A stretch of DNA of 64,000 nucleotides from Bacteroidota bacterium (GTDB lineage Bacteria; Bacteroidota; Bacteroidia; UKL13-3), in contig JAIXSO010000013.1 of the NCBI GenBank assembly GCA_027484685.1, forward strand, positions 1-64,000. The letters run 5' to 3'. The position numbers were made by a program, and so were the translations under genes. Positions 4,401-50,543 of the stretch are shown one piece after another; position 1 is the stretch's first letter, and each line of letters begins with the position of its first letter. The notes beneath the pieces are model-generated. The model worked only from the letters and a program-made list of their open reading frames with translations, ran no database searches and was not told the DNA's origin.

Positions 4401-4459
4401 CTTCGCTAAAACACCAACAAGAGCGAAAACAACTAAATTCTAATTTGAAATTGACAACT

Positions 4460-4571
4460 AAGTACTACGGACTAAGTACTATGAACCAAGTACTACGAAC
4501 CAAGTACTACGAATTAAGTACTACAAACTAAGTACTACAAACTAAGTACTACAAACTAAGTACTACAAACT
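4460..4571. repeat. Tandem repeat, eight 14-bp units
   Basis: Eight consecutive units of AAGTACTACRAACT. The last four (4516-4571) are identical and the first four differ by one to three bases, as expected if the array grew recently at its right end. Every unit carries the palindrome AGTACT. The array ends 8 bases before the 3' end of the minus-strand lycopene cyclase/dioxygenase gene; a lone similar unit sits near 4276. Confidence 0.95.
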
Positions 4572-4578
4572 AAAACTA

Positions 4579-6597
4579 CTACAAATATTTTTTATAAAAA
4601 TGATTCATTGCAATTACATGTGGAAAGCTGATACATGAAATAAAAATAAAAAAAGTAGGTATAAAACTTTTATCAAATTGCTGGTTTAAACTCGTATTTC
4701 TTAGTAGTAGCAAAATACCAAATAATAAAAATGCACCTAATGTAAATGGCAATGCTTTCATAAATAAAGTTTTATTATTTGTATTCAATCCTTGTTTTAA
4801 ATGAATCCAACCATTTAAACTATGCTGGCCAATAAAATACAAACCAAATGAGGTAATTAATGGAAGTTGTATACAAATGGAAATAGTAATAATACTGATT
4901 AATATGGCTAAATTTTTCTCCAATATTGCCCACGTAAGTGCAATTGATATTAATAAATAACAAATGTATTTACCTTGTAAATTACTTATTTTAAAAACAT
5001 ATACATTTAAATTGCTTAGGATTTGATTGGTTTCACTAACATGACCCAATAAAAGAATAACTAAAAGAGTAATACCCCAAATAATATTTTTATAAGTGCT
5101 ATTACTTTTTGATTGCCATTGTTGCATATCTGCTTGACCAAAATGCCATGCTGAAAAGAGTAAAAAAATAAATAAAGCTAAATTGGGAAAAAACAGCCAA
5201 ACTAGTAAATAGATAAAAGCAAATCCTAGGTATTTAACAATAAAAGCAATACTTACCTTACTTTTAATATTCCCACTTTCAAGCACATAATCTAATGCAC
5301 CATGAGGTATGCCTATAAAAAACAATCCAATCAATAGTAAAAATGGTTCAACTAAAGTTAATAAATGAGCATTGTTGTTATTTACAAATAGTAATAGAAT
5401 TGAAAAAAATAAAACCAATAAAGGAAGTACCAATTGTGTTAACTTAAATGAAATATGCCAACCTAATGATTTTAAAAATGGAGCAAACTGTAAGGTAGAA
5501 AGTATTTTTATATCTTGCCAAAGCGTTGTTTTTTCGTCCAGAAATTTCATCACTTCAAGCGCTTTATTTTTTTCAAATAATGCCATAAAAATTGGCTTTC
5601 CTTTTACAGGTTGTTTACTTAAAATGAGTAAAAGTAATCTATCGTAAAATTTATACTTTAAGTTAATGGGTAATGCCTTTGGGTGCTTACCATTTTTTAA
5701 ACACATACATATTTGCGAAGCATGCTTAAACATGTTTTTAAATGCATAACCTGTACTTGGTTTAATGGCACCTGTTTTTGCTCCAATGGGAATAACTTTT
5801 TTTAAAAGAGTAGGTTCTATTTTTGCTGTACTCATTGGAATACAGCCTTTTTCTGTTTCTATAATGGTAAAAGTTCCAAATCTTTTAGTAATATACTGTT
5901 GTAAAATTATTTGTGCTTCTTTTGGGTCAATCACCTTTTCGCCAAAACGAGTAAGTTCAACTAATATTTTGTTATCACTAAATGGAAGCACATACATAAA
6001 TTGAGTGAATCCAAGTTGTTCTACTTCAAAATCCATCAAATCTACACAGCTGTAGTCTGCTATTGGTGTATCTAATTCAATTAAGTATCCTAAAAATGAT
6101 TGAAATAAATGTGCTTCATTTTTTTTAGGTAAACTAAACTGTGGAGGCCGGCTATCAAAAACCATTTTCGCGGTAAATGTTTCCTCGTTGGTAATTACCT
6201 CTATATTATCTTCAATGGGTAGTAATTTTTTTACATAAGAACTTATTTTATTGATGTTGTTTCGGACAATTATTTTTTGTAATTCGTTGTATAAATCAAC
6301 ACTCGAAATATGGAAATATTCCATTGGTAATAAGGCTTCTGGTGTATTTTGGTTTACGCTTACTTTTTGCCATTGTTTGCTAATTAAATGCTTACAAGTT
6401 TTAACAAGGGTGTCGTTGGCATTTTCCCAAAAGCAATAAGTTTTATCGTTAAGGGTTTTTGCATCTGGTTCAATAATAACAATACTTTTACCAGTTAGCA
6501 GATTTTGTTTTTCCATTTGCATGAGTAATAGCGTAGCTGAAGCACCGCCACCAGCAAACAGATAATCAATAACAGGTAATTTTGATTTTGTTAACAC
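4579..6597 (-). CDS. Fused lycopene beta-cyclase / Brp-Blh beta-carotene 15,15'-dioxygenase
   Basis: One uninterrupted 672-residue frame carries two enzymes. Residues 1-375 are a CrtY-type lycopene cyclase: nucleotide-binding GGGAS (16-20), CFWE (55-58), 'YVLPFSDNKILVELTRFGE' (202-220), 'GAKTGAIKPSTGYAF' (272-286) and the family's C-terminal 'FMALFEKNKA...FLDEKTT' (337-358). Residues about 380-672 are a multi-pass Brp/Blh dioxygenase with its conserved histidines: GIPHGALD (H432), AWHFGQAD (H485), GQHSLNGWIH (H592, H599) and FPHVIAMNH (H660, H666). It should cyclise lycopene to beta-carotene and cleave this to two retinals at the membrane. Blh and CrtY are normally separate proteins of about 300 and 385 residues. 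Translation starts at a GTG; the next in-frame Met (26) lies beyond the Rossmann motif. It lies directly downstream of the rhodopsin gene, after a terminator hairpin. Confidence 0.92.
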   Translation of the reverse strand: MLTKSKLPVIDYLFAGGGASATLLLMQMEKQNLLTGKSIVIIEPDAKTLNDKTYCFWENANDTLVKTCKHLISKQWQKVSVNQNTPEALLPMEYFHISSVDLYNELQKIIVRNNINKISSYVKKLLPIEDNIEVITNEETFTAKMVFDSRPPQFSLPKKNEAHLFQSFLGYLIELDTPIADYSCVDLMDFEVEQLGFTQFMYVLPFSDNKILVELTRFGEKVIDPKEAQIILQQYITKRFGTFTIIETEKGCIPMSTAKIEPTLLKKVIPIGAKTGAIKPSTGYAFKNMFKHASQICMCLKNGKHPKALPINLKYKFYDRLLLLILSKQPVKGKPIFMALFEKNKALEVMKFLDEKTTLWQDIKILSTLQFAPFLKSLGWHISFKLTQLVLPLLVLFFSILLLFVNNNNAHLLTLVEPFLLLIGLFFIGIPHGALDYVLESGNIKSKVSIAFIVKYLGFAFIYLLVWLFFPNLALFIFLLFSAWHFGQADMQQWQSKSNSTYKNIIWGITLLVILLLGHVSETNQILSNLNVYVFKISNLQGKYICYLLISIALTWAILEKNLAILISIITISICIQLPLITSFGLYFIGQHSLNGWIHLKQGLNTNNKTLFMKALPFTLGAFLLFGILLLLRNTSLNQQFDKSFIPTFFIFISCISFPHVIAMNHFYKKYL

Positions 6598-10094: not shown

Positions 10095-12728
10095 TTACTT
10101 ACTTTTTAAATATTCCACTTCTGGCTCTGCTGCCATTAATAGTTCAGGTTCTTCTTCTTTTTTTACACCCCAAACCTCAGCAATTTTTGTTTTAATTTTT
10201 TGCTCAAATATTTCAATTAAGCGTTTGTTGGCATTTACCAATTGCATTTCCTCTTCTATGGCTTTTACAATGGTTTGTTGTTCTTGGATAGGTGGCACAC
10301 TAATTTGAAGTTCCTGTACCATTCCAAGTGTTAAATATCTTGTACCTGTTCCTTTTGAAATATTTTGCAAATGACCAAGATGATCTTCAAGCTGTACCTT
10401 TAACAACTTATACTCAAATCTATTTTCGAATTCCTTCTTAATTGTAATTACATATGTCCTTTGATATGCATTAAACTTTCCTTTATAATGTTTAACATCA
10501 TAAACTGCTGCTGCATTATTTCCGGCAAGTAATAATGCTTCACAATCAAAAGCCCATTTATCAATTTTGAAAGTGTCTTTAGAACAAGTAAAAAATGGAT
10601 ATTCACCATCTTCTTTTGCTTCATTACTATTTAGTTTTCCAGTAGTGATATTTACCAAATGTTGCAGCTCCACCATTTCCCAATCAGGGTTGATAGAGAT
10701 AGTCGGTTTGTAGTTGTTTACTACCTGTTTAGCTCCGTCTATTATTTTTTGGTAGCCTTCTATTTCGGCAACTATTTGTTGTTGTATTTCAAGCGGTGGG
10801 AGGGGGATTTCAATGCTTCTAAGCAATCCCAACGAAACGTATTTTTGTGCAACACCTTTTGCTTCTGAAAGGAAGAAATCATTTATTTGTTCAGAACCTA
10901 AAATGTATTTAAGGTAAACATTATTGACTTTAGAATTTTCATTGAACTTAATTAGGGCTACATTTTTAATCCCAAATTCTCTTTCCTTTTTTACAATAAT
11001 TGGGTTACCAATTGTACCAATCATCGGCATAATGATGTCTCCATCTTCAACCAATGAACGTTTATTTATTTTATCTAAATCTTCTCTTGAAATCAGGTTC
11101 ACATTTGAAAAATCAATTTTACCATCAATAATATTTTTAGATGTCACTAATGGAAAACCATCCATTACATAGGTAGGACTATCGTGAGTTCCATCACGTA
11201 CATCACATATGTCTTCAAGTTTTACTAATTCAAATTCAGTTAATGAAACCTTGGCTTCAAAATATCTTTCGGCACTTAAAACCACATCTTTATTTCCTAA
11301 AACAATTTCTTTCTCAACTAGAGTTGCCAAGCCCGGTAAATCTTCGAAAGCAGATGTTTCACTGTCGTTCAGCATGACAAGGTAGTTTTTGTATGCTTCT
11401 AAAGTTTGCAAAGCCAAAGGCAAATCGTTTTTGTCAATCTCTCTGCGTTGTGCGCCTAAATCAAAGCCATCGTTTTCAATTTTCAAAAACAAAATATGTT
11501 TACTCTTTTTCGCCAAGCATTTGTCTAAAATCAATACACTTGTTTTTACACCACTGTATGGTTGAAACACACCTGCCGGTAAACTAATTACAGCTATCAA
11601 ACTATCTTGCACCAACATTTTACGCAATTGCTTGTAAGCAGTTTGGCTAGTGGCTACTATTCCGTTGGGTACTACTATGCCTGCTCGTCCGTTAGGGTTT
11701 AAATGTTCGGCTATATAATCGGTAAACAATACTTCAGCTTTATTGGCTTGCACGCCAAATCTTTTATGTGGTCTAATCCCGCCTTTTGGAGTCATAAATG
11801 GCGGGTTTGCCAAAATTACATCATAGGTTTCGTTCCAACGTTCTTCGCTGCTTAAGCTATCGTATTCGTGTATTAAAGGTGTAGCAAAACCATGCAAATA
11901 CATATTTACCAAACTCAAGCGTACCATATCGGGGCTAATATCGTAACCAACTATGTTTTGTGCCAATCGTTTTCTTTCGTCAGGCGTTAATTGGTCTGAA
12001 CCATGATTAATTTGATCAAATGATTTTCCTTGATTTTTGTCTTTGTTAATCATGTAATCAAAAAAATCAACTGAATCAAGGTTCAGATTTATTTTTTTAT
12101 AAGCACTCAACAAAAATCCCGCAGTTCCACAAGCAGGGTCAAGCACGGTTTCATTTTTTTGTGGGTTTACGCAAGCCGTTACAAAATCTATAATATGCCT
12201 TGGTGTTCTAAACTGTCCTGCATCGCCTTGGCTACCCATTACGCTTAATAAGTATTCAAAAGCATCGCCTAGTTTTTCGCTATGGCTATATTCAAATTCA
12301 TTAATGGTTTTAAGAAACATTTTTAACGTTTCTGGGTCGCGGTAAGGTAAATAAGCATTTTTAAAAATATCGCGAAACAAGGCAGGAATATTGGGGTTTT
12401 TATCCATTCCTGTAATAGCCTCCGAATACAGTTGAAGCATTTCGGTGGCTGTTACTTTGCTATCAAATAATTTATCCCAGCGGTATTTACTAAATTCTAT
12501 TAATTTATCTTGTTTGCGGTCGGTTGGAAATTCAGGATCAGGAATTTTATAATCAGCAAAAAATTTAACGTTACCGCCCAATTCTATTGCTTCTTTATCC
12601 ATGTCGTCCATGAATTTATAAATCAAACCAATGGTAATTTGTTCAATTTGTGCTTTAGGGTCTGGCAATTTTCCTACCAATATATCTCGACAATCGTCTA
12701 TTCTTTTCTTGGTTTGTGAATCTAACAT
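10095..12728 (-). CDS. Type I restriction-modification methyltransferase-specificity fusion (HsdM-HsdS)
   Basis: 877 residues joining two subunits that are usually separate. Residues 1-480 are an N6-adenine methyltransferase of HsdM type: helical N-domain, SAM motif LDPACGTAGF (196-205) and catalytic NPPF (308-311). Residues about 500-870 contain two target-recognition domains, each ending in the typical S-subunit phrase (IPLPPLEIQQQIVAEIEGYQ and VSVPPIQEQQ-like) and a coiled-coil spacer. The protein should methylate and provide sequence recognition for the HsdR translocase. With two complete recognition halves, a split asymmetric target is expected; the sequence cannot be predicted. It begins 6 bases after the RAYT stop codon in the hsdR-RAYT-hsdMS operon. 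Confidence 0.92.
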   Translation of the reverse strand: MLDSQTKKRIDDCRDILVGKLPDPKAQIEQITIGLIYKFMDDMDKEAIELGGNVKFFADYKIPDPEFPTDRKQDKLIEFSKYRWDKLFDSKVTATEMLQLYSEAITGMDKNPNIPALFRDIFKNAYLPYRDPETLKMFLKTINEFEYSHSEKLGDAFEYLLSVMGSQGDAGQFRTPRHIIDFVTACVNPQKNETVLDPACGTAGFLLSAYKKINLNLDSVDFFDYMINKDKNQGKSFDQINHGSDQLTPDERKRLAQNIVGYDISPDMVRLSLVNMYLHGFATPLIHEYDSLSSEERWNETYDVILANPPFMTPKGGIRPHKRFGVQANKAEVLFTDYIAEHLNPNGRAGIVVPNGIVATSQTAYKQLRKMLVQDSLIAVISLPAGVFQPYSGVKTSVLILDKCLAKKSKHILFLKIENDGFDLGAQRREIDKNDLPLALQTLEAYKNYLVMLNDSETSAFEDLPGLATLVEKEIVLGNKDVVLSAERYFEAKVSLTEFELVKLEDICDVRDGTHDSPTYVMDGFPLVTSKNIIDGKIDFSNVNLISREDLDKINKRSLVEDGDIIMPMIGTIGNPIIVKKEREFGIKNVALIKFNENSKVNNVYLKYILGSEQINDFFLSEAKGVAQKYVSLGLLRSIEIPLPPLEIQQQIVAEIEGYQKIIDGAKQVVNNYKPTISINPDWEMVELQHLVNITTGKLNSNEAKEDGEYPFFTCSKDTFKIDKWAFDCEALLLAGNNAAAVYDVKHYKGKFNAYQRTYVITIKKEFENRFEYKLLKVQLEDHLGHLQNISKGTGTRYLTLGMVQELQISVPPIQEQQTIVKAIEEEMQLVNANKRLIEIFEQKIKTKIAEVWGVKKEEEPELLMAAEPEVEYLKSK

Positions 12729-12734
12729 GTATGG

Positions 12735-13841
12735 TTATTTATAAAATTGGTCTTTACACCAATTTGCGGGGTTATTTGTAATGTATTCCGAAATTTTTTG
12801 GAACGATTCATCATTCCTAATAATATGGTCGTGAAATCGAGATTGCCATGCAAAATCAATATTTATTTTACGCGATTCAAATGCGGTACGGCCTTTATAC
12901 CATCTAATTATTTTTGATAAATTATCGTGCAACATAGGATTATGATTTCCGGTAATTCCACCAATTGGTTTATCTGGTAGAGACGCGATTAATCGCGTCT
13001 GTACGTTTGCGTCCGATGATGGAGACGCGATAAATCGCGTCTGTACGTGCGCGTTATCCTGTAGAGACGCAATTAATTGCGTCTCCTGTGATTGCGTTGA
13101 TTCATTTGCGTCCGATAATGGAGACGCGATAAATCGCGTCTGTACATTTGCGTTATCCTGTAGAGACGCAATTAATTGCGTCTCCTGTGATTGCGTTGAA
13201 TCATTTGCGTCCGATAATGGAGACGCGATAAATCGCGTCTGTACGTTTGCGTCATCCTGTAGAGACGCAATTAATTGCGTCTCCTGTGTTTGCGTTGATT
13301 CATTTGTGTCCGATGATTGAGACGCGATAAATCGCGTCTGTACGTGCGGGTTATCCTGTAAAGACGCAATTAATTGCGTCTCCTGTGATTGCGTTGTTTC
13401 ATCTGCGTCCGATAATGGAGACGCGATAAATCGCGTCTGTACATTTGCGTTATCCTGTAGAGACGCAATTAATTGCGTCTGTGATTGCGTCTGTTGTAAT
13501 TGCGTTGATTCTTTTGCGTCCGATAATGGAGACGCGATAAATCGCGTCTGTACGTCCGCATCATCCTGTTTATCAATAATTATAATGCCATGCATATGAT
13601 TAGGCATAATTACATGGTTATGCAATTTTGCAAATGGAAATTTTTCCGGAATTTGTAACCAAAAATCATTGGCCAATTTCCCAATTTCATTTAAAACCAT
13701 TTCTTCATTTATTACATCACCAAAAAAACAGGTTCTGTTTTGTGTGCAAATGGTTACAAAATAGGAAGAATTTAATCCATAATCCCAACCTATTAATCTG
13801 CTAGATGGAATGCGATATTTATTTTTATATTTATCTGACAT
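12735..13841 (-). CDS. REP-associated tyrosine transposase (RAYT, Y1 HUH family) with in-frame repeat insert
   Basis: 368 residues. The N-terminal half has the HUH motif 'HNHVIMPNHMHGI' (metal ligands H82 and H84). The C-terminal half (about 285-368) has 'KIIRWYKGRTAFE', 'FAWQSRFHDHIIR' and 'SEYITNNP', whose Y353 is at the nucleophile position of the family, so the catalytic core looks intact. Between them, residues about 93-275 consist of 33-residue repeats ('QTRFIASPLSDA...TQLIASLQDNA') encoded by 99-bp DNA units rich in palindromes; ordinary RAYTs of this type have only a short linker there. The ATG overlaps the hsdR stop (TAATG) and the stop lies 6 bases before hsdMS, so the gene is wired into the restriction operon. 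RAYTs nick and join single strands at palindromic REP-like elements. Confidence 0.9.
   Translation of the reverse strand: MSDKYKNKYRIPSSRLIGWDYGLNSSYFVTICTQNRTCFFGDVINEEMVLNEIGKLANDFWLQIPEKFPFAKLHNHVIMPNHMHGIIIIDKQDDADVQTRFIASPLSDAKESTQLQQTQSQTQLIASLQDNANVQTRFIASPLSDADETTQSQETQLIASLQDNPHVQTRFIASQSSDTNESTQTQETQLIASLQDDANVQTRFIASPLSDANDSTQSQETQLIASLQDNANVQTRFIASPLSDANESTQSQETQLIASLQDNAHVQTRFIASPSSDANVQTRLIASLPDKPIGGITGNHNPMLHDNLSKIIRWYKGRTAFESRKINIDFAWQSRFHDHIIRNDESFQKISEYITNNPANWCKDQFYK
12981..13549. repeat. Array of 12 palindromes inside the RAYT gene (99-bp tandem repeat)
   Basis: Two palindrome types alternate. Type A (half-site AGACGCGAT) begins at 12981, 13023, 13122, 13221, 13320, 13419 and 13530; type B (half-site GAGACGCAATT, perfect over 20-22 bp) begins at 13064, 13163, 13262, 13362 and 13461. 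Starts alternate by about 41 and 58 bases, a 99-bp period, which is 33 codons and keeps the frame; the last spacing is 12 bases longer. Many are framed by GTA...TAC. I find no copy elsewhere in the window. Confidence 0.95.
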
Positions 13842-16369
13842 TATGCTGCAAATTGGTCTAATTTTATATAATCTTTTATATAAACGGGTATTACATCACG
13901 GTATTTTGCAGCCACATCTTTAAACTGTGCAATGGTTAAGGTAGGGTTGGTTTGCAAGGCATGGAAATCTTTGTTTTCAATTATTTTCCTTATGTCTTGG
14001 TCCACTATATAGGCTTTAAAGAAATACTTTAATGCCCTTAGGTTTACATCTTCTTCGGGTGGATAAATGGAAATAAATTTATCAAACTCTTCTTCTAATA
14101 ATTCGTCTTTGGTTTTGAATTTTGGAATAATGCCAAAAATCTTTTCTACCATTTCTCTAATTGATACCTTGCGGTCAATCTTTGCAGATTTACGCAATTT
14201 TTCAAGGTTAAAGTATTCTTCGGGTTTGTCAAAAATTTCTTGTTGAATGTGGTTTATTACATGCTCCCAATTTCCAAGTTCTACATTTTTCTTAATAATA
14301 TCGTCCATGATAATGCGGCTTTCAAAACTTTTAAAAAGCTCACGGTCAATGCGCATACCTTCTACACCAATTTGTTGTTCATTTAACACTAACAAAGGGT
14401 CGGGTAATAAACTGGTGTATTCTTTTATAGTTTGACCACCGTTTACAATGATAGTAGCACCTAGTCTTGGTTTAGGTAATATTAGTTTTTCATCGTAATC
14501 AAACTTTTCTTCAAAATATTCGCAATTGGCAAAAAAGTCAAATAGCTTAAATAACTCTTTTTCGTGACGAATAATTTCCTCTTCGTTCAATTCGTTTTTA
14601 AATTTAAACTCAAAAGTATTTTTGCGTGTTCCTCTTCCTTTTATTTGCACAAAATCAGCAGGGCTAAATATTGGCCTCATCATACAAATATTTAATAAAT
14701 CAGGACAATCGTAACCTGTAGTCATCATTCCTACTGTAACACAAACCCTTGTTTTGCTGGTTTTGTAACCCTCTAGCCAATTTGATACGCCACTTAATTT
14801 ATTATTGGTAAAATTAATGGTCATTTGCTGTGCATCGCCAACTTGCGATGTTACTTGCATGGCAAAATCTGATTGGTATTTACCAGGGAAATATTGTTCA
14901 GCATAATCGTTCAACATTTCAGTAATTTTCCTTGCATGGTTTTGACTTACTGCAAAAATAATTGTCTTACCAATTTCGTTGGTAATAGGGTCGCGTAAAG
15001 CATTTTCTAAAAATGTTTGACAAAAAGAACTGTTGGTTTTTTCAGAGAAAAACTTCTTTTCAAAATCACGCGAAATAAAGGTTTCAACTTCTTCTCCTTC
15101 CTCAGCAGTTATTGCCACTGCATAACCTTCATCCGAAAGCAATTGAGTAGTTATTTCCGTTCTGGCATCAATGGTTTTTGGATTTTTTAAATAATCATCT
15201 TTTACACCTTCTATAAGCGAATACCTAAAAGTTGGTTCTCCACCTTCGCATCCAAAAGTGTTGTAGGTATCGCGCAGCATTCTACGTTCTATTTCTCTGG
15301 GGTCGTTATCTCTAATTTTTTGTGGGTCAACACCTTTTAAATAATCTTTTGGGGTAGCAGTTAATCCTAATTTATAACCCGAAAAATATTCAAAAACAGC
15401 TCTTGCATTTCCTGAAATAGATCGGTGAGATTCGTCAGAAATTAATAAATCAAAATCTGTAGGTGAAAATTCATTTCTATACTTGTTATTGTACATTAAT
15501 GATTGAATAGTGGTAACTATAATGTCAGCTTTTCTCCAATCGTTTTTATGTTCTTTATAAATAAAAGTGCTGTAATCAGGTTTTAAATAATTAATAAATG
15601 CTTTGCATGCTTGGTCTTCTAGTTCCAATCTATCCACCAAAAACAGTACTTTTCTTGCATTTTTTGTTCTTAAAAAGAGCCTAATAACAGCAGCAGCAGT
15701 TAATGTTTTGCCAGTTCCTGTGGCCATTTCAAACAGAAAACGGTCTTTACCTTCACTTACTGCTTGCTGTAATTTTTCAATAGCTTTTAATTGATAATTG
15801 CGAAGAAACCTTAATCCATTTGTCCAAATAAAATTTTTGCTTAGTTCAATACTTCCTTTCCAATCTGGCTTTATAGCATAATCGGGCATTTGAACTGCTA
15901 CTATATAATCGTTTGCTATCTTTTCTAGCGCTAACGCATTTCTATCAGGATTCCATTCTTTAATTGCTCCAATTTCCATTGGAGAAGGAAATTTATAAAT
16001 AGGTTTTGGATTACCTTTAGTTATATCCCAAAAATAATGAACTATTCCATTTGAAAGGATTACATATTGCGCCCCAACAGTTTTAGCGTATTTTCTGGCT
16101 TGTTCTTTAGCAACTAATGGATGAAGGCTTTCTTTTTTTGCTTCAAGTACACAAATGGGTTTGTTATTACTATCAGTTAATAAAAAATCTAAAGAACCAC
16201 CTTTTGTTTTTTCATAATCATTTCCCCAAGCATCTATTTCGGTTTGGGTAATTTTTATATGGTTTTCAAGTAAAATATTAGCTTTCCCTGCCTCATTGTC
16301 AAAGAATTTCCAGCCTGCTTCGGTTAGCAGTTGGTTTATTTTAATTCTTGCTTGGGCTTCGTTATTCAT
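13841..16369 (-). CDS. hsdR: Type I restriction endonuclease subunit R (HsdR, EcoEI-like)
   Basis: 842 residues. An N-terminal PD-(D/E)xK nuclease is visible as D61 ... E76-x-K78 (SLDFLL and VLEAKKE), followed by a superfamily 2 translocase with Walker A FEMATGTGKT (213-222), the DEAD-box variant DESH (312-315), motif III GLTATP and a helicase C-terminal half ('GMMTTGYDCPDLLNICMMRP', 'QIKGRGTR'). The C-terminal 200 residues fit the EcoEI-R C-domain. It pumps DNA past the enzyme and cuts unmethylated DNA. First gene of the minus-strand operon; its stop TAA overlaps the ATG of the RAYT gene. Confidence 0.93.
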   Translation of the reverse strand: MNNEAQARIKINQLLTEAGWKFFDNEAGKANILLENHIKITQTEIDAWGNDYEKTKGGSLDFLLTDSNNKPICVLEAKKESLHPLVAKEQARKYAKTVGAQYVILSNGIVHYFWDITKGNPKPIYKFPSPMEIGAIKEWNPDRNALALEKIANDYIVAVQMPDYAIKPDWKGSIELSKNFIWTNGLRFLRNYQLKAIEKLQQAVSEGKDRFLFEMATGTGKTLTAAAVIRLFLRTKNARKVLFLVDRLELEDQACKAFINYLKPDYSTFIYKEHKNDWRKADIIVTTIQSLMYNNKYRNEFSPTDFDLLISDESHRSISGNARAVFEYFSGYKLGLTATPKDYLKGVDPQKIRDNDPREIERRMLRDTYNTFGCEGGEPTFRYSLIEGVKDDYLKNPKTIDARTEITTQLLSDEGYAVAITAEEGEEVETFISRDFEKKFFSEKTNSSFCQTFLENALRDPITNEIGKTIIFAVSQNHARKITEMLNDYAEQYFPGKYQSDFAMQVTSQVGDAQQMTINFTNNKLSGVSNWLEGYKTSKTRVCVTVGMMTTGYDCPDLLNICMMRPIFSPADFVQIKGRGTRKNTFEFKFKNELNEEEIIRHEKELFKLFDFFANCEYFEEKFDYDEKLILPKPRLGATIIVNGGQTIKEYTSLLPDPLLVLNEQQIGVEGMRIDRELFKSFESRIIMDDIIKKNVELGNWEHVINHIQQEIFDKPEEYFNLEKLRKSAKIDRKVSIREMVEKIFGIIPKFKTKDELLEEEFDKFISIYPPEEDVNLRALKYFFKAYIVDQDIRKIIENKDFHALQTNPTLTIAQFKDVAAKYRDVIPVYIKDYIKLDQFAA

Positions 16370-23090: not shown

Positions 23091-23480
23091 ATTTATTGAT
23101 TTTTGATTTGGAGATTTGGAGATTTTTGATTTAGAGATTGTTGGATTTAGAGATTGTTGGATTGTTAAATTGCTAGATTGTCTATTGCTTATTGCTTTTT
23201 CCGTTGGCTAATCCCGAAAGCTTTCGGGAGAACGGTAATTGATCTTTTGCCCATTGCCCATTGCCTATTGCTAATTGCCCATTGCTAATTGCCAATTACT
23301 TTTTCCGTTGGCTAATCCCGAAAGCTTTCGGGAGAACGGCAATTGATCTTTTGCTGATTGCCCATTGCCCATTGCCCATTGCCTATTGCTAATTGCATAT
23401 TGTTTATTGCTAGTTGCCAGAGGCTAGAAGCCAGAAGCTATTAGCCAGAAGCCAAAAGCCAGAAGCTAGTTTCCAGAAGC
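23091..23480. repeat. Degenerate 7/8-mer repeat region with duplicated palindrome module
   Basis: Non-coding stretch in three styles: 8-mers such as ttagagattgttggat (23091-23180), 7-mers of the ATTGCCC/ATTGCTA type (23180-23410), and 7-mers of the GAAGCCA type (23415-23480). A module of about 55 bases containing the perfect palindrome TCCCGAAAGCTTTCGGGA, framed by CCGTT/AACGG, occurs twice, centred in 23212-23229 and 23316-23333, exactly 104 bases apart. Confidence 0.9.
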
Positions 23481-23495
23481 CCCAAAAACCATCAC

Positions 23496-38993: not shown

Positions 38994-39190
38994 ATTATGA
39001 ATTGTGAGTTGAGAAATGAGCACTGAGCTTTGAGAAATGAGAGTTGAAAATTGGGAAATTTAACTAAACAACTCCCGATTTATCGGGACAACCATTTAGC
39101 AATCTAACCATTTAGCAATCCAGCAATTTAACAATCCAACAATTTAACAATCTACAAATCACTAAATCTCCAAATCAATAAATAACTAAA
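38994..39190. repeat. Repeat insert inside the efflux operon
   Basis: 38994-39060 holds G/A-T short repeats (tgagaaatgagagttg). 39073-39088 is the palindrome TCCCGATTTATCGGGA. From 39090 to 39180 there is a 16-bp periodic repeat (accatttagcaatcta), which itself is two similar 8-mers. The reverse complement of this wording occurs at 23110-23180. Confidence 0.88.
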
Positions 39191-49955: not shown

Positions 49956-50543
49956 ATGAAAAAAATAGCCTTTACCATATTAGCAATTTCAACTTTAGTA
50001 TTTTTTGCATGTGAAGAGAAAAAGGACGATAAGCCTGCAACTACTACTACAGCTACAACTAGCACTACTAGTACAACTAGCACTACTAGTACAACTAGCA
50101 CTACCAGTACAACTGGAGCAACCTATTATATTAGCGCAAGTTTCAATGGAGTAAACACGCAGTTTACCAATTTAACAGTTTATAGAGATGAAACAGAAGG
50201 TAATGTTTCATTACTTATTGTTGCCAATAATACAACATCTGAAAAGCCATCTATTGAGTTTAATTTAAAACAACCCGTTTCTGGTTGGGCTGATAACTTA
50301 AGTTATGCTTTAAATATGGAACAAAGCTCTAGTTATGTTAAATATACTACAGCTGCAGGCAGGGTATATACTAGCAGTTTAATAAATATTGATGATCAAC
50401 CTTTCAATATTAACTTTAGCAAACTTGAGTTTACTAAAGGTGGAAGTGTAGTAGCTACCATGAATGGTGATTTAGCAATTGATACTGATACAAGTAGGGT
50501 GAAAATTGTAAGTGGTAAATTAAACTTAATTTGCGACAATTAG
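49956..50543 (+). CDS. Lipoprotein with Thr/Ser repeat linker
   Basis: 195 residues: lipoprotein signal (VFFACEEKKDD, Cys about 19), a Thr/Ser-only linker (about 27-53, TTSTTS repeated) and a beta-rich globular domain to the end. The linker may be O-glycosylated, since Bacteroidota glycosylate D-S/T motifs and similar, but this is inference. No domain recognised in the C-terminal part. Confidence 0.75.
   Translation: MKKIAFTILAISTLVFFACEEKKDDKPATTTTATTSTTSTTSTTSTTSTTSTTGATYYISASFNGVNTQFTNLTVYRDETEGNVSLLIVANNTTSEKPSIEFNLKQPVSGWADNLSYALNMEQSSSYVKYTTAAGRVYTSSLINIDDQPFNINFSKLEFTKGGSVVATMNGDLAIDTDTSRVKIVSGKLNLICDN
50055..50116. repeat. 18-bp in-frame tandem repeat within the lipoprotein gene
   Basis: ACAACTAGCACTACTAGT repeated three times (the third with one change) plus a partial fourth copy. 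Each unit is six codons, TTSTTS, so copy-number change would alter the linker length without a frameshift. Confidence 0.92.

What the first reader, a model, noticed from the sequence alone, without database searches (positions are those of the whole stretch)
12981..13549. RAYT transposase gene that carries an in-frame array of palindromes
Twelve palindromes of two alternating types form a 99-bp (33-codon) tandem unit in the linker between the HUH motif and the tyrosine-bearing C-terminal part. The period keeps the frame exactly, and the two catalytic halves remain intact. RAYTs act on palindromic elements, so the gene may contain copies of its own substrate, spread into itself by strand transfer and tolerated because they translate into a harmless 'QTRFIAS...TQLIAS' linker. 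I know of no description of such a self-targeted, coding REP array. Spread of the elements in frame could also be a record of past activity.
Basis: partly seen in the sequence, partly recalled or inferred. Interest (0 to 1): 0.88.

Follow-up and report, generated by a model that had tools for sequence, protein, structure and literature searches.

The report
Transposase gene carrying its own targets
A bacterial single-strand DNA enzyme gene holds twelve in-frame copies of the DNA hairpin that the enzyme probably recognises; such insertions are already described, but here they match the protein helix coded right beside them, which hints at how these enzymes change target.

Summary
ORF 12735-13841 (minus, 368 aa) is a RAYT/TnpAREP with NHMH, WQ and YITNNP motifs; 12 perfect palindromes (7 of one type, 5 of another) lie in frame in its linker. 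Linker palindromes occur in 93 of 131 and, in a second sample, 62 of 79 homologues; this array is the largest found. It grew by in-frame tandem duplication: spacers are shared between units and one junction is a chimera. The palindromes look like the enzyme's own substrate: 12 of 13 genes with its helix type (WYKGR, itself included) carry this stem in the linker, against 6 of 112 others; out of sample, with a stricter pattern, 2 of 2 against 0 of 77. More generally, REP sequence follows the alpha-C helix coded after the linker better than the rest of the protein. In one same-genus pair, linker and helix differ together inside a gene otherwise about 90% identical. I suggest a linked substrate-plus-reader cassette.

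The parts
12735..13841 (-). RAYT / TnpAREP gene (REP-associated tyrosine transposase), 368 aa
   Evidence: NCBIfam NF047646 REP_Tyr_transpos E 3.9e-16, 59.2 bits, below the cut-off of 80; a linker-less family profile hits PDB 4er8, TnpAREP, E 2e-9
13590..13601 (-). HUH motif NHMH (residues 81-84)
   Evidence: H82 and H84 invariant in alignment A2 of 18 sequences
12981..13549 (-). in-frame array of 12 REP-like palindromes (7 type A, 5 type B), 99-bp unit
12924..13574 (-). linker between the N-half and C-half profiles (217 aa, residues 90-306), mostly predicted disordered; longest of the 137 ORFs with both halves
12873..12938 (-). helix alpha-C (residues 302-323, PMLHDNLSKIIRWYKGRTAFES), by alignment the equivalent of E. 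coli alpha3; type WYKGR. The 20-aa segment used in the comparisons is residues 307-326
   Evidence: helix in the model; alignment to 4er8; alpha3 contact stated in PMC8266576 section 26
12843..12848 (-). WQ motif (W332, Q333), invariant in A2
12768..12785 (-). catalytic tyrosine motif YITNNP (Y353)
   Evidence: Y353, N357 and P358 invariant in A2
12977..13000 (+). one of the 5 palindromes that keep a GTAGAGACG foot (on the template strand); the others start at 13061, 13160, 13259 and 13457

Best explanation
The gene encodes a subclass-2.4-like RAYT whose linker carries its own cognate REP. One or two founder REPs sat in the disordered linker, directly upstream of the codons for alpha-C, the helix that reads the REP. 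In-frame tandem duplication and slippage of a 99-bp A+B unit then amplified them to 12, and the disordered linker tolerated the growth. More generally in this subclass, the linker REP and alpha-C behave as one linked substrate-plus-reader cassette that can be exchanged as a block, so that enzyme specificity and a matching REP are inherited together. Shown: anatomy, frame, shared spacers, prevalence in homologues, REP/alpha-C association in and out of sample, block divergence in specific gene pairs. Inferred: cognacy in the biochemical sense, the role of alpha-C in this enzyme (from E. coli), recombination as the cause of the blocks, and any benefit of carrying the REP inside the gene.
For: Prevalence: linker palindromes in 93 of 131 homologues, at 6.96 per kb of linker against 0.40 per kb of core, and in 62 of 79 genes of a second sample. 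Linker REP matches own flanking palindrome at >=0.9 in 25 of 65 genes that have both, shuffled mean 1.7, max 6. Window helix type: 12 of 13 WYKGR genes (window gene included) have GCRATNNATYGC in the linker against 6 of 112 others, p=1.3e-11. Among 170 gene pairs with N-half identity >=0.65, REP similarity follows alpha-C (rho 0.78, 0 of 500 permutations reach it), not the rest of the C-half (0.09, 73 of 500), and weakly N (0.27, 0 of 500). The 38 pairs with N >=0.75: alpha-C same/different by REP same/different = 22,3/0,13, p=1e-7. REPs flanking the gene, which are not next to alpha-C, also follow alpha-C (59 genes, beta 0.247, 0 of 500). Out of sample: nearest alpha-C predicts the REP in 26 of 62 genes, nearest N in 17, rest of C in 7, random 4.9. 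L081/L082, same genus: DNA identity N 0.90, linker 0.55, alpha-C 0.63, rest 0.88, with different REPs. Array growth: homologous 39-bp and 24-bp spacers; 13 of 63 spacer columns vary against 0 of 36 palindrome-core columns, p=0.0035. 43 of 131 linkers hold tandem arrays of period >=12, in 42 of them with a best period divisible by 3.
Against: No biochemistry. The window gene has no matching REP within 1 kb, and its genome holds only 3 further sites within 2 mismatches, so there is no sign of recent dispersal. Only 5 of 12 palindromes keep an exact GTAGAGACG foot. Out of sample, the advantage of alpha-C over N is modest (13 against 4 discordant genes, p=0.049), and 36 of 62 genes were not predicted by alpha-C; even with a best alpha-C identity >=0.7 only 22 of 35 were. 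N also has an independent effect on REP (beta 0.20). When training genes with similar N-halves (>=0.5) are barred, alpha-C predicts only 9 of 88; the mirror test, from N with similar alpha-C barred, 6 of 88. Pairs of genes are not independent. An 8-column scan peaks in alpha-C (0.155), but an N-terminal window comes close (0.147). Counts of synonymous changes (0 in palindrome cores, 3 in spacers) are too small to show DNA-level selection.
Confidence: 0.68

Rival explanations
1. Plain slippage in a permissive linker: an ordinary REP landed in a disordered loop long ago and the array is neutral repeat growth, with no functional link to the enzyme beyond that.
For: Shared spacers and the chimeric junction; 43 of 131 linkers carry tandem arrays, some of them peptide repeats that are not REPs, e.g. 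in L163 and L178; low pLDDT.
Against: It does not explain why REPs sit in most sampled homologous linkers or why their sequence follows alpha-C and often matches flanking REPs.
Confidence: 0.22
2. One reading: the enzyme inserted REP copies one after another into its own gene by strand transfer.
For: REPs are cognate by association; judged by its peptide, an in-frame REP also lies in the neighbouring hsdM of L076, so REPs can enter genes.
Against: Spacers between copies are homologous across units and the last junction looks like a deletion chimera, as expected for tandem duplication and not for independent insertions.
Confidence: 0.05
3. The hairpins act in the mRNA or in single-stranded DNA of the gene itself, for example as an autoregulatory or pausing element, and are kept for that reason.
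For: Invariant stems against variable spacers; in some homologues the arms extend up to 13 bp beyond the GTAG foot inside the coding sequence.
Against: No expression data; stems may be intact simply because duplication was recent; 38 of 131 homologues lack any linker palindrome of arm >=8.
Confidence: 0.12
4. The repeat peptide itself is what matters (a spacer such as QTRFIAS...ETQLIAS) and the palindromes are incidental.
For: In-frame periods, which open frames require anyway.
Against: GTAG feet occur in two different frames of the homologues' linkers (45 and 23 feet), so the encoded peptides differ while the palindrome persists.
Confidence: 0.05

Closest known systems
TnpAREP subclass 2.4 (RAYT group 4), Quentin et al. 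2018, PMC6006769
   Same: WQ and YIxNNP motifs, HuH motif, variable insertion between beta3 and alpha-C, REPs inserted in frame within the tnpAREP gene; the named relatives found are six Bacteroidetes-type MAGs and one cyanobacterium, in line with its range
   Different: 12 REPs in a 99-bp tandem array, against mostly 0-2 in the homologues sampled here; no matching flanking REP found; HUH is NHMH rather than NH[IFV]H; the passages and sections I read do not describe a REP/alpha-C cassette
REP 'orthoswitch', Nunvar et al. 2013, PMC3686654 (passages)
   Same: Orthologous RAYT genes associated with different REP classes; the paper's model also assumes RAYTs act preferentially on REPs flanking their own gene
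   Different: There the REPs flank the gene, the switch is attributed to mutation of the flanking REPs, and the authors say they can only speculate about the mechanism; here the REP lies inside the gene and differs together with alpha-C as a block
Intragenic GTAG/CGTC REPs and Rickettsia palindromic elements, PMC3733652 (passages)
   Same: Palindromes in frame inside coding genes, up to clusters encoding 43-82 aa
   Different: The genes named in the passages I saw are unrelated to the REP enzyme; here the host gene is the enzyme itself
E. coli TnpAREP (PDB 4er8; PMC8266576, passages and section 26)
   Same: Same enzyme family; its alpha3 helix contacts the REP
   Different: No long linker in the aligned stretch; bulged REPs

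Membership tests
TnpAREP subclass 2.4 | HuH motif NH[IFV]H | tested here: inconclusive
   NHMH in the window protein; both histidines present, middle residue M is outside the printed [IFV]
TnpAREP subclass 2.4 | WQ and YIxNNP motifs | tested here: met
   W332-Q333, Y353-I-T-N-N-P
TnpAREP subclass 2.4 | Variable insertion between beta3 and alpha-C | tested here: met
   217-aa linker by profile boundaries, between strand 82-90 and helix 302-323 of the model
TnpAREP subclass 2.4 | REP inserted in frame inside the gene | tested here: met
   12 palindromes, all in one frame
TnpAREP subclass 2.4 | REPs flanking the gene | tested here: not met
   No matching palindrome within 1 kb; PMC6006769 section 12 states this for the large majority of genes, not all, so I do not treat it as excluding
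RAYT / REP_Tyr_transpos in general | Curated profile scores over cut-off | tested here: not met
   PF01797 16.0 bits (cut-off 23), NF047646 59.2 (cut-off 80), probably because the long linker splits the match. The linker-less family profile hits 4er8 at E 2e-9
RAYT in general | REP-dependent single-strand cleavage | not testable with these tools
   needs a purified protein
GTAG REP family | GTAG foot at the stem | tested here: inconclusive
   exact GTAGAGACG kept in 5 of 12 palindromes

The most novel reading that the evidence does not exclude
In this RAYT subclass the REP inside the gene and the adjacent alpha-C helix form a swappable specificity cassette: substrate and reader are coded side by side in one ORF, are exchanged together by recombination between conserved outer halves, and so can switch an enzyme to a new REP family while delivering the first copy of that REP. 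This would be a mechanism for the unexplained 'orthoswitch'. The window gene would be an amplified version of such a cassette.
Probability: 0.55. Interest if true: 0.78.

Novelty: new variant of a known kind. Interest (0 to 1): 0.6.

Why it matters
How RAYTs and their REPs stay matched, and how a RAYT acquires a new REP family, is an open question in print ('we can only speculate', PMC3686654, passage seen). A substrate copy embedded beside its own recognition helix makes that directly testable: swap linker and helix and see whether REP preference follows. It may also allow REP specificity to be read in part from sequence (for example WYKGR with CGATTAATCG, RSYKS often with GTTGCATGCAAC).

Tried and rejected
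Rejected: repeated self-insertion as the source of the array (spacers are shared). Rejected: a dispersed, abundant copy set of this REP in the host (3 further sites within 2 mismatches). Rejected: chance palindromes. Tried with weak result: a simple two-class N/C exchange test (nearest-N neighbour shares C class in 115 of 125, random expectation 0.81) and a triplet search for recombination (5 triplets). Synonymous-site test inside the array: too few sites. Blocked prediction: from alpha-C with genes of N identity >=0.5 barred, 9 of 88, and from N with genes of alpha-C identity >=0.5 barred, 6 of 88 (no permutation run at this threshold); at 0.55, 22 and 5 of 88, permuted mean for alpha-C 8.4, max 15; at 0.6, 36 and 10. 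The absence of GTAG feet in the third frame carries no information: it would put TAG in frame, and I only took open frames. Fold search of the full model gives modest scores, with a disordered linker in it: the best hits are IS200/IS605-type transposases, 4er8 at rank 26, E 0.016. PHROGs gave only families of unknown function.

Rows dropped: of 137 ORFs with both halves in one frame (17 further ORFs had the N-half only and were not measured), 6 were dropped as duplicates or fragments (131 left); 125 had both halves long enough; 88 had a usable linker REP. For three genes the REP core was set by hand: L119 and L186, where the longest palindrome spanned two REPs, and the window gene, to use the A type. 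The first sample is not random: loci were chosen partly for long open frames or split matches. In one search, 84 loci gave 79 new genes; of these 62 had a palindrome. The stricter WYKGR pattern used (centre TTN or NAA) was set. In one search the core comparison left out the last A copy (one base different), the 51-bp first spacer and the chimeric last spacer.

Genome counts (14 of 395 genomes hold AGACGCGATTAATCGCGTCT; 12 of these 14, the host included, also have a RAYT match at E <=0.001, against 141 of the other 381, p=3e-4) were matched by hand.

Full report
What is there. The minus-strand ORF 12735-13841 (368 aa) has the two halves of a RAYT/TnpAREP: NHMH (residues 81-84), WQ (332-333) and YITNNP (353-358). 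Curated profiles score below their cut-offs, probably because the match is split by a long linker; a family profile made without linkers hits the solved TnpAREP 4er8 at E 2e-9. AlphaFold gives block means of pLDDT 95-98 over residues 31-90 and 90-98 over 311-360, <50 for residues 133-303, and a helix at 302-323 directly after the array.

The array. Twelve palindromes lie at 12981-13549, all in the same frame: 7 of type A and 5 of type B. The 99-bp unit repeats exactly in the middle; a 12-bp in-frame difference alters one end and a missing 57 bp, also in frame, the other (spacings 69, 42/57..., 42). TRF scores it highest of 32 rows in the window.

How it grew. The 39-bp (4 copies) and 24-bp (5 copies) spacers between palindromes are homologous from unit to unit. 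The last A-A spacer begins like the 39-bp spacer and ends like the 24-bp one, with GACGCAAA shared at the join. This is what tandem duplication with slippage or unequal exchange would leave, not twelve insertions. Spacers vary at 13 of 63 columns, palindrome cores at 0 of 36 (p=0.0035; the last A copy, which differs at one base, was left out). Whether this means selection on the stems is open: synonymous counts are too small.

Genome-wide. Within 2 mismatches the palindrome occurs 15 times in the 4.5-Mb host assembly (72 contigs), 12 of them here. Other GTAG-type REPs with different stems are present. Two further RAYTs of this kind in the same genome each have a different REP between their halves: C60 (in frame) and C2 (by coordinates).

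Prior description. Quentin et al. 2018 (PMC6006769; I saw the outline, passages and sections 12 and 31, not the supplements) state that in subclass 2.4 REPs are inserted within tnpAREP genes without disrupting the frame, generally between HuH and Y. So the kind is known. PMC3733652 (passages) reports intragenic REPs in other genes.

Homologues. I collected 131 distinct homologues from 64 family and 395 class genomes plus 7 named loci (sample partly chosen for long frames). 93 have a palindrome of arm >=8 in the linker: 140 in 20.1 kb of linker, 23 in 58.0 kb of core, 160 in 77.5 kb of 300-bp flanks, and 2.7 on average in codon-shuffled linkers. A second sample from the phylum (247 genomes) gave 79 new genes, 62 with a palindrome and at most 2 per gene. 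The window gene, with 12 palindromes and 217 aa, is the extreme of both samples. GTAG feet occur in two frames (45 and 23); the third would put TAG in frame and is excluded by taking open frames.

Cognacy. Linker and flanking palindromes of the same gene match at >=0.9 in 25 of 65 genes that have both, shuffled mean 1.7, max 6; the window gene is not among the 25. Genes with the window's helix type WYKGR carry GCRATNNATYGC in the linker in 12 of 13 cases (window gene included), against 6 of 112 others; those six all have an ATGCAT centre. Out of sample, with a stricter pattern set after, 2 of 2 against 0 of 77. The exact A stem with TTAA centre is found in 14 of 395 class genomes, 12 of which (host included) have a RAYT match, against 141 of 381 others.

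REP follows the reading helix. Across 88 genes with a usable linker REP, regression of REP similarity gives standardised effects of 0.33 for alpha-C (20 aa), 0.20 for the N-half and 0.08 for the rest of the C-half; 0, 0 and 15 of 500 permutations reach them. Among the 170 pairs with similar N-halves the rank correlations are 0.78 (alpha-C), 0.09 (rest of C) and 0.27 (N); 0, 73 and 0 of 500 permutations reach them. Flanking REPs, which are not adjacent to alpha-C, show a similar order (alpha-C 0.25, N 0.20, rest of C -0.04; 59 genes), so adjacency alone is not the whole explanation. In the new sample nearest alpha-C predicts the REP in 26 of 62, nearest N in 17, rest of C in 7, random 4.9; alpha-C over N is 13 against 4 discordant, p=0.049. 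36 of 62 were not predicted, and the column scan has an N-terminal window (0.147) close to the alpha-C peak (0.155). PMC8266576 (passages and section 26) assigns REP contacts to alpha3, K82 in E. coli; by alignment this lies in the YK(S/G) segment of alpha-C.

Blocks. L081 and L082, same genus, are about 90% identical in DNA over the N-half, 0.55 in the linker, 0.63 in alpha-C and 0.88 after it; their REPs differ. L109/L110 show the same kind of dip, as do two tandem paralogues in L136 (N 0.80, linker 0.36, alpha-C 0.68, rest of C 0.95). Of 11 pairs with both outer parts >=0.75 identical, the five with different alpha-C all have different REPs, and five of the six with similar alpha-C have the same REP (some pairs share a gene). 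I infer exchange of a cassette; rapid co-divergence in place is not excluded.

Verdict. Observation confirmed; the kind is known; the array is an extreme member made by slippage; the association of linker REP with the adjacent helix appears new. My searches of the open PMC library (listings, with four papers opened) showed no description of it, but subscription journals and supplements were not available. PMC3686654 (passages) describes switching of REPs at orthologous RAYTs without a known mechanism.

Noticed in passing
window 10095-16369: The RAYT gene sits between hsdR (13841-16369; its stop overlaps the RAYT start by one base) and an hsdM gene with an hsdS-like C-terminal part (10095-12728; gene names from recall of the sequences, no family search run). 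The same hsdR-RAYT-hsdM order occurs in L076, L114/L221 and L128/L219 with hsdR 83-85% identical, while L220 (hsdR 81%) has hsdR and hsdM adjacent with no RAYT.
   Followed up: partly
L076 4673-7220: The hsdM neighbour of this RAYT carries the peptide RRDAMHGVST, which is what the RAYT's own linker REP encodes: apparently an in-frame cognate REP inside the adjacent gene (DNA not checked).
   Followed up: no
RAYT loci: Sequence similar to the window hsdM gene lies in the fetched flanks of 10 RAYT loci (L065 = window, L076, L114, L128, L173, L137, L092, L109, L164, L181), six of them only 25-33% identical; RAYTs of this type may favour restriction-modification loci. No control was run.
   Followed up: no
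L163, L109, L178, L125, L160, L181, L116 linkers: Some linker REPs have arms extending 5-13 bp beyond the GTAG foot, giving perfect arms of 19-27 bp inside coding sequence.
   Followed up: no
L163 and L178 linkers: Tandem peptide repeats in the same linker that are not made of REPs (VSPVGSGL and RDGDRN repeats), so the linker seems a general hot spot for in-frame expansion.
   Followed up: partly
window 23184-23481, 4456-4579, 39089-39183, 50038-50114: Other tandem repeats (periods among them 7, 14, 16, 18, 21 and 104 bp) listed by TRF.
   Followed up: no
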